Assembly (NCBI GenBank): GCA_021234155.1
Contig: JAJEKV010000003.1
Coordinates: 22,287,569-22,351,568, forward strand
Reading direction: 5' to 3'
Origin: Isoetes taiwanensis
Lineage: Eukaryota; Streptophyta; Lycopodiopsida; Isoetales; Isoetaceae
Length of the DNA stretch: 64,000 nucleotides
Shown here: piece by piece, positions 58,179 through 61,999 of the stretch
Layout: each line of letters opens with the position of its first letter
Numbering within the stretch: position 1 is the first letter of the stretch
The notes under the pieces: model-generated
Told to the model about the DNA's origin: nothing
What the model saw: only the letters and a program-made list of their open reading frames with translations
The model's database searches: none
Translations under genes and position numbers: made by a program

Positions 58179-58360
58179 TTGTACTTTGCGCCCCCCTGTC
58201 CCGGTGAAGGCGACGGCCTGCACCAGGTTGAATAAGAGAAGGGAGGGGTTGGGGTTGTTGGGGTTTATTTTGTCTTATTTGGGCTGTTCGGCTGTTTTTG
58301 TCTTATTAACCTGGAGCACGCCGTCGCCTTCACCGGGACAGGGGGGGCCGCAAAGTACAA
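58179..58360. repeat. Inverted repeat with ~58-bp arms
   Basis: TTGTACTTTGCG...CCAGGTT.AATAAGA (58179-58236) pairs with its inverted copy ending CGCAAAGTACAA (about 58301-58360), with few mismatches and a T/G-rich loop of about 64 bases. Transcripts would form a long hairpin. It resembles a MITE or a small-RNA-producing hairpin; no clear target duplication flanks it. Confidence 0.88.
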
Positions 58361-58524
58361 GTCTCCCCATTTTCATCTCCATGGACGCAGACTGTCTCAT
58401 TGGCTTCTCATGTTCTAAACTGCTTCACTGCCACAAGATACCAGACCAGATTATAGAGTCGGATAGAAGCCTCCAGACCAATATGGAAACAGGGTCGCAT
58501 TAATTCCCTGGCGACCATTCCGAT

Positions 58525-58583
58525 GCTGACACGTGTCAGCCCCCTACAATCCGGAATGGAAGTTGGGTCTTCCAATTCCGGAT
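58525..58583. repeat. Palindrome and hairpin near the left end of the recombinase unit
   Basis: 58525-58540 is a perfect 16-bp palindrome. 58549-58583 folds with 14-bp arms ATCCGGAATGGAAG / CTTCCAATTCCGGAT (one unpaired base) around TTGGGT. Confidence 0.9.
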
Positions 58584-59030
58584 GACTGGTTTAGCAGGTT
58601 TCCCTTATTATTTTTCATTGTTTTCTTCACTGTTGTTTTTTTCACTGTTTTTTTTCCTCACTGCTTTCACTGAAACTTACACTCAAACTTACACAAAATA
58701 AACATTGATTGGCTCAAACACTGAAACTTAAGCATTGATTCAAAATATCAAAACATTGAAAACATCACTGTATTTAACTTTTCACTGTTTTTTGAAGATC
58801 ACTGTAATGAAAGCATCACTGTATTTTCACTGCAAAACTAGATCACTCAAAACATTGCACTGGATCATTGACTAAGATACTGCATATAGTAGATGCCACT
58901 GGATCACAATTCCTGCAACGTCATCTCCTGCAACTTCATCTCCTGCAAGACAATACAATAATATTCAACACCTGGAAAACATAATACTTACAATGAAAAT
59001 ATGGAATAAGGAATAAAGAAAACATAATAC

Positions 59031-61602
59031 TTACAATGATTTTACTAATGATCCTGCCTCACTCAAGCTGCCAACGTTTATAACAAAATTCTCGATCCTG
59101 TTACCTGTGATTGAAACTCTCCCACCACTAGAAAAAACATTTTCATCGTTGAAATACTTCTTCAATGCTGGCTTCTCATTCAACAGATGATCTAGGTCGG
59201 TCATATAGGCATCGTCAATGACGACAGGAGCAAAAACTCCACTAGAAGAACCTGCAATTAAATTAAAAACAATAAATAAAGCAAGAATTCAAAGAAACTA
59301 CAAGAATTCAAAGAAATACAAACCTGCAACTACAAAAATTCAAAGAAACCTGAAACTACAAAAATTCAAAGAAACCTGCAACTACAAGAATTCAAAGAAA
59401 TAGAAAATATTCAAGTACCAGAACTTGCAGCTACATTTCTGACATCTTTTAGCGGAATGGAATTTGAAGAACGCAGACCAGCTGCCTTTTCCGCATTACC
59501 AGATAGGCCAGCATTCAAAGTTTGTACGTTAGCAGCAAAAGATTCGACATACGTCTTACCAGAATTCAAACACTCCATCGCAGATGCCTTTGCTACAATT
59601 CCGCTTTGATCATACCTCTGATAAGATTCTGGATTTTTATGCCCTGTAATTTTCATTCCAATCTCTATCGGAACACCTGAAACTGACATCTGTGTGATCG
59701 CCGTGGTCCTGCAACTTTTATTTGTATAGTTACCTTCTAAATGACAGATTGCTGCCATATCTCTAAACCAAGTACCAATAGTCTTCGAAGACACATGATT
59801 AGTGTTATACCAAATCTCAGATCTAGGACGATTTATGGCCTGCAAGAAGACAAACCTGCCACCAAATTTGTCCTGCACCTCATACTTCGGCAACCTAAAT
59901 TCCAAGTGCTTCCAGCACTCTATGACATCTTCCTCATAGCATCTTACCGGCTCACGAAAATCCTCAGGTTTACATTTATTTATTCCGCCATGCCAATTTT
60001 TACTCGTTGTCTCGCAATACTCAAGGTATTCCCTAACACAATCCTTCCCAATTGCAAACTGGAAATCACGCACCTTACGCAACTCTACGCCGCCGCGAAT
60101 AAGAAATCTGGACATGCAATAAAATGCAAACCTCTTTTGCAAGCCCAAATTATTGGTTACTTGATGTGCTTCATGTCCCAAAATCCGGCATTGATCTTCC
60201 CTGCTAATAATGTCAGACTTCTTCCGCTTTGGAATGCATCCAGCTGCAACAGACTCTTGCATTGCCACCTCCAATGCTTTACGAGCCTTTATAAACTTTA
60301 TATCATGGTACGTATCAATCAACTTCTCTTCTGTCCTATTCTGAATCATTCTTGCATCCTGTGCACGACGCAAGATTCTGTTAAAGCCTCTATACAAATT
60401 CTGCAACCTGCAGAAAAGCAATATAAACATACGTTAAAACTTACATAAATATTAAAAACAAATATAAAAATAAATCAGAACTTACGTATCCGGAGGATAA
60501 CATTTCCCATCAAGTCGCCGCACACACAACATAAATTCTTCCAAATTATCTGCCAGCTCGTCCAAGGGAATTTCTTCAATCGCTTTATCTACTGATTTTC
60601 CAACGTGCAACCTCCATGCATCAAATCGACCCCTGATCCAGTCGTCCTTCGTTTCAGATGGATTTACAAATGGTGCATTCACCCTCTTAACAAGTTCGGG
60701 ATCCAAATCGGTAATCCCACCAATACGTAATGCCTTCTTTCCACCTCTGCCATTTACTACCTCTGCAATACCATTCTCATCTTCTACATCACTGCCATCT
60801 GCCCTATTTTCTACACCATCTCCCATAATTGTCTCATCTTCAAATGGAGTACCAAGAAAGAAAGAAGGACAAGTCTCTTCTAAACTTACACCACCTATAA
60901 GAAACAAAATACAATATGGAATCAGGGTCAAAACTACATACAGCAGAACAGACCTGAAAACCCTACATACTAGCAGAACAGACTTGAAAAATAAATAAAA
61001 GAATGATACATACCAGCACTCGTGGCTCCAGAACTCGTGGCTCCAGCACTCGTGGCTCCAGCATTCGTGGCTCCAGAACTCGTGGCTGCAAAACTAGTGG
61101 CTCCAGAAGCATCTGCATATAAACTCCTGCCTCCAGAAGCATCTGCATTTGAACTCCTCCCTCCACAAGCATCTGCAATAGCAAAGAAATGTTGCATGCA
61201 ACAATAAAGTAATCTTTAATAAGAATAGAACGTACCTGTGCCATCATCAGAACCTAGGGGAGCTAAATCCGAACAAGAAACACCTGAAACATAAAAATAA
61301 AGCTAAGATTCGCTAAAAACTCATAAAGATTAACTAAAAACTCGTCAACATTAACTAAAAACTCGCCAAGATGAACAAATACCTGCATTATTTCGACCTA
61401 CTACTCCAACTTCGCTCAAAGAACCAGCTGCTAAAGCTAAGCAAGAAAGATCAGCTTGCGAAGCCACAAAAAACTCCAATACTGCAAAAATGAAGCCAAA
61501 AATGCCTTGAGCAAGCTTCCTTCTGGCCGTCGCCTTCGCCATTCGAAGAGAAACGCTGCTCGGATGCATAGGCGGCCTCCCTGGGCGCCTCGACGAAGTC
61601 AT
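59031..61602 (-). CDS. DUF3504/Crypton-type tyrosine recombinase-like protein, six exons
   Basis: Exons on -: 61602-61383, 61283-61236, 61172-61014, 60894-60486, 60407-59419, 59251-59031. All have GT...AG borders and consistent phases, giving 682 codons with stop. The N-terminus holds a hydrophobic segment (GIFGFIFAVLEFFV) and a Ser/Gly/Ala/Thr repeat (GATSSGATSAG). Next comes a DUF3504-type core-binding region (LEEFMLCVRRLDGKCYPPDT, FIKARKALEVAMQESVAAGC), then a catalytic part: FLIRGGVELRKVRDFQF (Arg), YTNKSCRTTAITQMSVSGV (Arg; HxxR reads KxxR), KITGHKNPESYQRY (His and the presumed nucleophile Tyr). This matches the recombinase domain of Crypton transposons and ZMYM/QRICH1 proteins. Start uncertain: ATG at 61542 or 61749 is also possible. 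Intact frame suggests recent function. Confidence 0.82.
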
Positions 61603-61651
61603 GCCCGCAGGGGAAAAGGGGGGCAAATTTTGCTCCCCTGTTTCCATATTG

Positions 61652-61728
61652 ATGGGGAAAGGAAATTGGGTCACAATTTCCGGTCCCCGGCTGGACCGGA
61701 AATTGCGACCCAATTTCCTTTCCCCCAT
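61652..61728. repeat. 77-bp palindrome upstream of the recombinase gene
   Basis: ATGGGGAAAGGAAATTGGGT...CCGGTCC and GGACCGG...CCCAATTTCCTTTCCCCCAT are inverted copies of about 35 bases with one mismatch and one extra base, separated by CCGGCT. It abuts the inverted repeat at 61651 and lies where the promoter or leader of the gene should be. Confidence 0.93.
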
Positions 61729-61999
61729 ACAACTTGTAAAAGGGCCCAACTTGCAAGTGAGAGGAAGAAGATGAAAACGGTTTTCTCATTAAAAAAATCT
61801 TACAAATGGGTTGCATCTTTTCACACGTTGCATCTTTTCACATCCATAATCCAATGGACCACAACAAAAGTTTTTTGCCCACAACAAAATCAACGGTCAA
61901 CATCGCGTACAAACTATCATCTTATTTGGGCTTTAGTATTTAGTACTATCAAAATATATGTAATTGTGTTTCAAATTTTTCTTTTTGTTTTTTTTTTTT

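What the first reader, a model, noticed from the sequence alone, without database searches (positions are those of the whole stretch)
58479..61728. Intact tyrosine-recombinase gene in a unit with inverted-repeat ends
The six-exon frame encodes a DUF3504/Crypton-like recombinase with R, R, H and Y residues kept, in a genome where almost every other frame is broken. The flanking perfect 16-bp inverted repeats (58479, 61636) and the hairpins beside both suggest a self-contained mobile unit of about 3.2 kb. Crypton-type recombinases are well known from fungi, animals and stramenopiles; an intron-bearing plant version with inverted ends would be unusual. It could equally be a domesticated gene.
Basis: partly seen in the sequence, partly recalled or inferred. 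Interest (0 to 1): 0.85.

Follow-up and report, generated by a model that had tools for sequence, protein, structure and literature searches.

The report
Plant jumping gene with folding ends
This 3.25-kb stretch of a quillwort (lycophyte plant) genome is a real mobile element that carries a tyrosine recombinase, and its ends are built so that one DNA strand could fold into a long hairpin holding the two ends side by side, an arrangement that resembles bacterial integron cassettes.

Summary
Window 58479-61729 is a transposon: related copies share its edges and five insertions have empty paralogous sites. Its six-exon, 681-residue gene is open and encodes a tyrosine recombinase under purifying selection. 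The host fits Isoetes taiwanensis.

The unexpected part is the left end: a hairpin followed by an inverted copy of the joined right+left ends (the circle junction). Read as one strand, both ends can anneal side by side to this inner copy. Across families with unrelated stems, pairing is kept by compensatory change, while unpaired positions recur at the same places: one or two bases at the crossover, and steps after 16 pairs on one side and 18 on the other, often G.A. Eight loci fetched only by the hairpin tip showed the same left end, 7 of 8 with a matching right end. The tip occurs 596 times (reversed control 0).

Best reading: a Crypton-like YR DNA transposon whose att site works as folded single-stranded DNA. 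That mechanism is inferred, not shown.

The parts
58479..61729 (-). complete transposon (3,251 bp), gene orientation minus; left end at 61729, right end at 58479
   Evidence: edges shared by copies; empty sites of related insertions; no empty site was found for the window's own insertion
61693..61729 (-). left terminus L: TATGGGGGAAAGGAAATTGGG..., outer hairpin arm
61652..61686 (-). inner hairpin arm, complement of L (rcL)
   Evidence: predicted DNA fold z-score -10.35
61636..61651 (-). inner inverted copy of the right end (rcR); with rcL it is an inverted copy of the circle junction R.L
58479..58494 (-). right terminus R: CCCTGTTTCCATATTG, edge after TTG
58525..58540 (-). right subterminal palindrome H2 (TGACACGTGTCA core; TGCCACGTGGCA in some other families)
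   Evidence: alignment A2
58550..58582 (-). right subterminal imperfect palindrome H1 (CGGAATTGG..ACCCAA..CCATTCCG), conserved between families
   Evidence: alignment A2
61383..61602 (-). exon 1 (begins ATG; RPGRPP motif, AT-hook-like by eye only)
61236..61283 (-). exon 2
61014..61172 (-). exon 3 (15-bp tandem repeats)
60486..60894 (-). exon 4
   Evidence: QRICH1 domain E=0.082 at residues 247-293
59419..60407 (-). exon 5, tyrosine-recombinase catalytic domain
   Evidence: Phage_integrase PF00589 E=5.9e-5, below Pfam's own cut-off; conserved residues
59031..59251 (-). exon 6 and stop codon

Best explanation
It is an autonomous tyrosine-recombinase (YR) DNA transposon, Crypton-like, in a lycophyte genome. 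SHOWN: related copies insert precisely, without a target-site duplication beyond a base or so; the left end is a hairpin followed by an inverted copy of the circle junction; the pairing is kept across families by compensatory change, with unpaired positions recurring at the same places. INFERRED: the element is recombined as one folded DNA strand. When the strand is exposed (for example at replication), right end R and left end L anneal side by side to the inner rcL-rcR stretch. This builds a duplex recombinase site out of one strand, with one or two crossover bases (TA) unpaired and mismatched steps, often G.A, bounding two arms of about 16 and 18 pairs. The recombinase joins R to L (excision as a circle) or exchanges the strand with a W-T-N-T-W-like target (insertion), and replication completes the second strand. 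Integron attC cassettes work in this way in bacteria. Non-autonomous elements of 1.0-1.3 kb carry the same ends and are presumably moved in trans.
For: Mobility: shared edges (14 of 16 left ends and 15 of 16 right ends printed) and 5 insertions with empty paralogous sites (L005, L008, L013, L014, L016). In L005 and L014, 3 of 3 paralogs each have A where the filled left junction has G, so that G came with the element; in the other three the target already has G. Function: dN/dS 0.04 (6 synonymous, 1 non-synonymous) between the window copy and L003, 0.21 to L005, 0.06 between L021 and L022. Inner circle junction: 18 of 19 elements score above the best of 500 shuffles (12 of the 19 belong to the window's own group), and unrelated families do not cross-match (own 52-86, unrelated 11-31). 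Covariation: R arm positions 1-16 paired in 8 of 8 families (position 14: 7 of 8), up to 3 Watson-Crick types per position; L arm positions 1-18 paired in 7-9 of 9 left ends, up to 4 types. Recurrent unpaired positions: R 17-18 in 7 of 8 (exact G.A pairs in 4), L 19-20 in 9 of 9 (G opposite A at 19 in 8). Hold-out: 8 of 8 loci chosen only by the hairpin tip have the left architecture, 7 of 8 a matching R end 0.97-1.31 kb from L; predicted folds of 6 of these 7 show both flanking loops and the crossover bulge. The gene-sense strand folds better than its complement in 13 of 14 left ends. No spliced-RNA route: the exon 4/5 intron is present in 22 of 22 measurable copies of 28 examined. No RT: Pfam scan of the gene frames and of 9 other frames.
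Against: No experiment; folding is predicted with ViennaRNA DNA parameters. The window's own copy has a shortened hairpin: it keeps the right-hand loop and a one-base crossover bulge but not the left-hand loop or the conserved tip. Several other copies also have short palindromes. Of 8 cognate junction folds, the right-hand loop is absent in L049 and only 2x1 in L045; the left-hand 2x2 loop is present in 5 (L005, L015, L021, L045, L046). L049/L050 lack the core deletion. In L054 the L 19-20 mismatch falls in the hairpin loop itself and so says nothing. Of 11 distant loci fetched, 5 show the whole plan clearly (L045, L046, L049, L050, L054), 3 in part (L052, L053, L055), and in 3 (L047, L048, L051) I did not find it. 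L014 fails the junction test and L003 is weak. L015 and L026 lack the TG before the left end. Palindromes can homogenise by template switching, which gives complementarity without selection, though that should erase recurrent mismatches. The strand bias in folding is modest (mean 3.2 kcal/mol). H1 in the right end resembles the R arm, which would also fit duplex accessory sites.
Confidence: 0.6

Rival explanations
1. The inner rcL-rcR stretch is an ordinary double-stranded accessory site: the recombinase binds it as duplex DNA to build the synaptic complex, and the hairpin is incidental or acts as a cruciform.
For: Tyrosine recombinases usually act on duplex sites; the inner copy has both arms, and its core is 1-2 bp shorter in most families placed, so it could be bound but not crossed over. 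H1 in the right end looks like another pair of arms.
Against: Duplex recognition does not need complementarity to run tens of base pairs beyond the arms to a conserved tip. In L005, L015, L021 and L046 GA stands on the same strand at all four flanks, which breaks the two-fold symmetry of a duplex site but gives symmetric G.A steps when folded.
Confidence: 0.22
2. It is a DIRS1-like splint: the inner stretch lines up the ends of a linear reverse-transcribed or single-stranded product for circularisation, so the element is an RT-less relative of DIRS retrotransposons.
For: DIRS1 has this logic: inverted terminal repeats, internal complementary regions overlapping at a 3-bp circular junction, and insertion without target-site duplication (PMC3266345, passages). 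Here the core is also about 3 bp (TTG).
Against: No reverse transcriptase in the frames scanned; introns kept in 22 of 22 measurable copies, so a spliced RNA is not the intermediate. In DIRS1 the complementary regions lie near the 3' end, here beside the left end.
Confidence: 0.13
3. The left hairpin is a structured RNA (or a small-RNA source) in the transcript and is kept for that reason.
For: G.A steps are also stable in RNA (recalled); the hairpin lies 5' of the gene on the same strand.
Against: The covariation continues into the right terminus 1-3 kb away and centres on the insertion point; copies without the recombinase gene keep it. No Rfam family reaches its gathering score in the window.
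Confidence: 0.04
4. It is a domesticated host gene with coincidental repeats.
For: Open gene, purifying selection.
Against: About 110 dispersed recombinase places and empty sites at insertions of related copies.
Confidence: 0.01

Closest known systems
Cryptons (CryptonA/F/I/S; Kojima and Jurka 2011, PMC3212892, passages)
   Same: DNA element that encodes only a tyrosine recombinase; CryptonS elements are said mostly to share TATGG termini, as the left end here; weak DUF3504/QRICH1-type sequence signal
   Different: In the passages seen Cryptons have no terminal inverted repeats and 4- to 6-bp terminal direct repeats (none in animal ones); the one with 16-bp inverted repeats is a Mariner fusion with TA duplications, which the sites here lack. 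No terminal hairpin or inner circle junction is mentioned there, and the hosts named are animals, fungi and stramenopiles
DIRS1-like retrotransposons (PMC3266345, passages)
   Same: internal region complementary to both termini (circle junction), about 3-bp core, no target-site duplication
   Different: no reverse transcriptase found here; complementary region next to the left end; introns kept
Integron cassettes with attC sites (PMC8946536, passages)
   Same: imperfect palindrome conserved in structure rather than sequence, with unpaired central spacer, constant imperfections and a variable terminal structure
   Different: eukaryotic, self-encoded recombinase; the folded site is made from both ends of the element; dispersed targets instead of attI; no biochemical evidence
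CTXphi folded attP (recalled; abstract start of PMC3089051 in a search listing only)
   Same: a single-stranded genome integrated with a host tyrosine-recombinase system through a folded site
   Different: bacterial phage, host-encoded recombinases; the resemblance is from memory and was not tested

Membership tests
Crypton | transposon encoding a tyrosine recombinase and no RT or DDE transposase | tested here: met
   Phage_integrase in the gene; no RT or DDE family in the gene frames and 9 other frames scanned with Pfam; mobility by empty sites
Crypton | catalytic tetrad R-H-R-Y | tested here: not met
   R113 in 16 of 16, R242 in 15 of 16, Y274 in 15 of 16 (one frame ends before it); the HxxR histidine is lysine (K239) in 16 of 16. 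The later histidine (GHK) is kept in 11 of 16, Q in 5
Crypton | no terminal inverted repeats; 4-6 bp terminal direct repeats | tested here: not met
   16-bp inverted repeats and a terminal hairpin; only G, or TG/TTG where the target matches, stands at both ends
Crypton | DUF3504 / Crypton YR sequence relationship | tested here: inconclusive
   1 of 16 members matches DUF3504 at E=0.002; QRICH1 domain E=0.082; no named Crypton sequences were available for a tree
DIRS1-like retrotransposon | reverse transcriptase / RNase H | tested here: not met
   no such match in the frames scanned; the gene spans 2.57 of 3.25 kb
DIRS1-like retrotransposon | internal region complementary to both termini (circle junction) | tested here: met
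   18 of 19 elements
integron attC-type folded site | structure conserved, sequence not; unpaired crossover bases and fixed imperfections | tested here: met
   with the exceptions told in the Against line
integron attC-type folded site | recombination of the folded single strand only | not testable with these tools
   needs biochemistry or strand-tagged transposition
domesticated DUF3504 gene | single-copy, immobile host gene | tested here: not met

The most novel reading that the evidence does not exclude
A eukaryotic transposon superfamily that moves as folded single-stranded DNA through a tyrosine recombinase: an independent (or ancestral) counterpart of integron attC recombination, and a candidate for the DNA ancestor of the DIRS internal circle junction, present in about eight families and hundreds of copies in one lycophyte.
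Probability: 0.52. Interest if true: 0.95.

Novelty: new variant of a known kind. Interest (0 to 1): 0.86.

Why it matters
How YR DNA transposons of eukaryotes excise and insert is little known; [quoted passage not shown] Here the recombination site can be read from covariation, including the crossover position, the arm lengths and a candidate strand, so the question becomes testable with short oligonucleotides. If the strand-folding reading holds, single-strand recombination by a tyrosine recombinase is not confined to bacteria and phages. A DIRS-like circle junction in an RT-less, intron-bearing element would also bear on whether that feature came before reverse transcriptase was acquired. 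A 2022 review left the YR retrotransposon group DIRS out of land plants (PMC9033089, passages), so an abundant YR element family in a lycophyte is itself notable.

Tried and rejected
Domesticated gene: rejected on copy number and empty sites. Simple TIR (DDE-type) transposon: rejected, because the five empty sites show no constant target-site duplication, the inner repeat is not at the edge, and the protein matches Phage_integrase. Second hairpin at 58191-58346 as part of the unit: rejected, a separate repeat family. Structure prediction: one AlphaFold2 job on exon 5 without an alignment gave mean pLDDT 39 and was not used. PDB sequence searches gave no tyrosine recombinase, so no fold comparison was made. 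Rfam: nothing in the window at gathering scores. PHROGs: the exon 5 protein matches phage integrase families (best E=1.3e-7), which adds nothing on the eukaryotic family. A tree against named Cryptons, DIRS or Starship recombinases was not built: no reference sequences were at hand. MAFFT alignments A3 and A4 of the left ends misalign the unrelated stems, so covariation was counted by register from the crossover, ungapped; the window group was left out of the L-arm table because of a one-base difference at the core, L019 and L024 in it are close relatives, and a one-base shift makes the R 17-18 entries of L045 and L055 read A.A/G.G. In one search the folds printed for L059 and L065 join the right end of a neighbouring element to their left end; they are not cognate and were not counted. 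In one search L001 and L004 were mislocated (start 0) and their low scores are void; one search repeats them. The L009 empty site is seen only in a tandem copy inside its own left flank; genome hits L035 and L036 did not align across the junction, so it is not among the five.

Counts: 12 of 14 joined flank pairs were sent (L021 and L020 were left out, and the last pair, L024, was slightly cut); 5 gave aligned empty sites; the window's own insertion (L001) gave none. Flank logo: 31 left and 32 right ends that could be placed; head-to-tail pairs, the duplicate L007, L015 and L026 (left) and L049-type ends were left out. The junction pattern gave 40 matches (control 2); 10 were fetched, 5 are head-to-tail junctions of two elements (L059, L060, L061, L064, L065; L059 and L060 come from one duplicated region), the other 5 look like ordinary targets or are unclear. 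The hold-out loci are 8 of the 30 perfect tip matches listed; L066, L067 and L072 are close to the L021 family, so they are not all independent.
Full report
Host and element. The source assembly has 1,658,258,908 bases in 1,110 contigs. This matches the published Isoetes taiwanensis assembly of 1658.30 Mb with 204 scaffolds and 909 unplaced contigs (PMC8566536, passages read). The host name is an inference from that match. The finding's interval is one copy of a repeated element. Searching the genome with it gave 77 matches at 69-100% identity, with 40 of 435 candidates scored. Laid side by side in gene orientation, 14 of 16 printed left ends begin TATGGGGG (L004 without the T; L012 truncated, L015 variant) and 15 of 16 right ends finish CATATTG (L002 truncated), with differing flanks except where a host repeat was copied along (L007/L008, L012/L013). 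In the window the element is therefore 58479-61729.

Insertion. I joined the flanks of 12 of 14 insertions and searched the genome. Five gave paralogous empty sites that align across the join (L005, L008, L013, L014, L016); the window's own site gave none. The insertion is precise: target ...WT-N-TW... becomes ...WT-[G-TATGGGG ... CATATT-G]-TW.... In L005 and L014 the empty paralogs (3 of 3 each) have A where the filled left junction has G. Over 31 left and 32 right flanks the target has W (31 of 31) and T (28 of 31) before the G, and T (27 of 32) after the right end. This resembles the element's own junction TTG-TA, as expected if recombination needs some core match. The circle-junction pattern occurs 40 times against 2 for its reversed control. 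Of 10 fetched, 5 are an element inserted exactly behind the TTG of another element's right end (two of them are in one duplicated region).

Gene. The catalytic part matches Phage_integrase at E=5.9e-5, below Pfam's cut-off; 12 of 16 aligned proteins match it, best 6e-8, and one matches DUF3504 at 0.002. Nine other open frames of the element gave no RT or transposase (best E=0.19 to an unrelated family). Of the active-site positions, R113, K145 and K239 are the same in 16 of 16, R242 in 15, Y274 in 15, H265 in 11 with Q in 5. K239 holds the place of the usual HxxR histidine. A protein search of the genome gave 129 matching stretches at 37-100% identity (119 of 2003 candidates scored), at about 110 places by my count, open frames among them. 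Exon 5 is under purifying selection: 6 synonymous and 1 non-synonymous difference from L003 (dN/dS 0.04), 0.21 to L005, 0.06 between L021 and L022, 0.17 between L022 and L029, 0.43 between L046 and L047. The exon 4/5 intron is present in 22 of 22 measurable copies out of 28 examined, the window among them, which speaks against a spliced RNA intermediate.

The ends. The left end is L - spacer - rcL - rcR: a hairpin whose inner arm runs directly into an inverted copy of the right terminus R. So rcL-rcR is an inverted copy of the circle junction R.L. Of 11 more distant loci, 5 show the same plan clearly with different end sequences, 3 in part, and in 3 I did not find it. Aligning each element's own R.L junction to its inner site, 18 of 19 exceed the best of 500 shuffles; 12 of the 19 are of the window's group. 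L014, whose left end is damaged, fails (18 against 26), and L003 is weak (35 against 27). Junctions of unrelated families do not match each other's inner sites (11-31, against 52-86 for their own, where the L001 and L004 entries are void because they were mislocated).

Folding. As one DNA strand, R24 plus the left end folds into a hairpin of about 120-180 nt, -50 to -92 kcal/mol for the eight cognate junctions (L001, L005, L015, L021, L024, L045, L046, L049). Left ends alone have z-scores from -7.3 to -15.8 for 7 tested, with no shuffle folding as well. Counted in register from the crossover, the right arm is paired at positions 1-16 in 8 of 8 families (position 14 in 7 of 8), with up to three Watson-Crick types at one position. 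Positions 17-18 are unpaired in 7 of 8: exact A.G/G.A in 4, A.A/G.G in two that are shifted by a base, another combination in one. The left arm is paired at positions 1-18 in 7 to 9 of 9 left ends, with all four Watson-Crick types at position 14. Positions 19-20 are unpaired in 9 of 9, G opposite A at position 19 in 8; for L054 this falls in the hairpin loop and says nothing. The inner copy lacks core bases: one in the window group, two (TA) in L021, L024, L045, L046 and L054, none in L049/L050. The hairpin tip around CCCGCGACCGGCGGTAGCCGGGAGCGGG holds a third GA/GA step and is shared by several families with unrelated stems. The gene-sense strand is predicted to fold better than its complement in 13 of 14 left ends (mean 3.2 kcal/mol). 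The window's own copy has lost the tip and the left-hand step but keeps the right-hand step and a one-base bulge.

Hold-out test. The tip pattern occurs 596 times with up to 3 mismatches; the reversed control occurs 0 times. I fetched 8 of the 30 listed perfect matches, without having looked at their surroundings. All 8 have L - tip - rcL - rcR, L070 and L071 with damaged stems. 7 of 8 have a matching R end 0.97-1.31 kb from L. None has the recombinase core: two match only the first 35-48 residues of the window protein, the rest nothing at E 1e-3. They are non-autonomous relatives; three of the eight are close to the L021 family. The predicted folds of 6 of these 7 show both flanking loops and the crossover bulge; L071 is degenerate. 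The right ends also carry two conserved palindromes, H1 and H2; H2 varies in concert (TGACACGTGTCA, TGCCACGTGGCA, TGCCACATGGCA).

Interpretation. The covariation shows selection on, or concerted evolution of, a strand that pairs R and L side by side with the inner stretch. Concerted evolution by template switching should remove mismatches, yet mismatches persist at the same places while the pairs around them change. That favours a functional folded strand. The closest working analogy is the integron attC site: an imperfect palindrome conserved in structure rather than sequence, with an unpaired central spacer and extrahelical bases that direct the recombinase to one strand (PMC8946536, passages). 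The closest architectural analogy is the DIRS1 internal circle junction with 3-bp core and no target-site duplication (PMC3266345, passages). Membership is a separate matter. It meets the Crypton definition 'YR only' but not 'no inverted repeats', nor the H of the tetrad. It fails DIRS because no RT was found. I therefore call it a new variant of the YR DNA transposon kind.

Literature. Searches for Crypton with plant terms, lycophyte, Selaginella, bryophyte/land plants, terminal inverted repeats, and palindromic hairpin termini, and for single-stranded YR sites in eukaryotes, listed no paper that by title and start of abstract describes such an element. The main texts of the two Isoetes genome papers hold neither 'Crypton' nor 'DIRS'. 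Supplementary data, Repbase and most subscription papers could not be searched, so this is not proof that it is unpublished.

Noticed in passing
58179-58360: A separate dispersed fold-back repeat (ends TTGTACTTTGCG...CGCAAAGTACAA), 112 matching pieces in the genome with its own included, 118 bp beyond the right end of the transposon.
   Followed up: partly
L003:905-1407: A 503-bp non-autonomous relative with the same left hairpin, inner junction and right end sits just beside the L003 copy.
   Followed up: partly
L059, L060, L061, L064, L065: Elements of different families stand head to tail, one inserted exactly behind the TTG of the other's right end; two of the loci lie in one duplicated region of C1026 (match spacing about 21 kb).
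   Followed up: partly
58550-58582: H1 in the right end (GACCCAACTTCCATTCCG) resembles the terminal R arm (GACCC..TTTCCATATTG) and by eye seems to change with it in some families, as if it were a second recombinase-binding site.
   Followed up: no
L007 and L008: Two copies share the same flanks on both sides, so one insertion was copied along with a larger host repeat; both right ends hold a partial tandem duplication.
   Followed up: no
L049-L052: A distant family (37-40% protein identity) has glutamine for the GHK histidine; L049 lacks the right-hand mismatch step yet keeps the hairpin and inner junction.
   Followed up: partly
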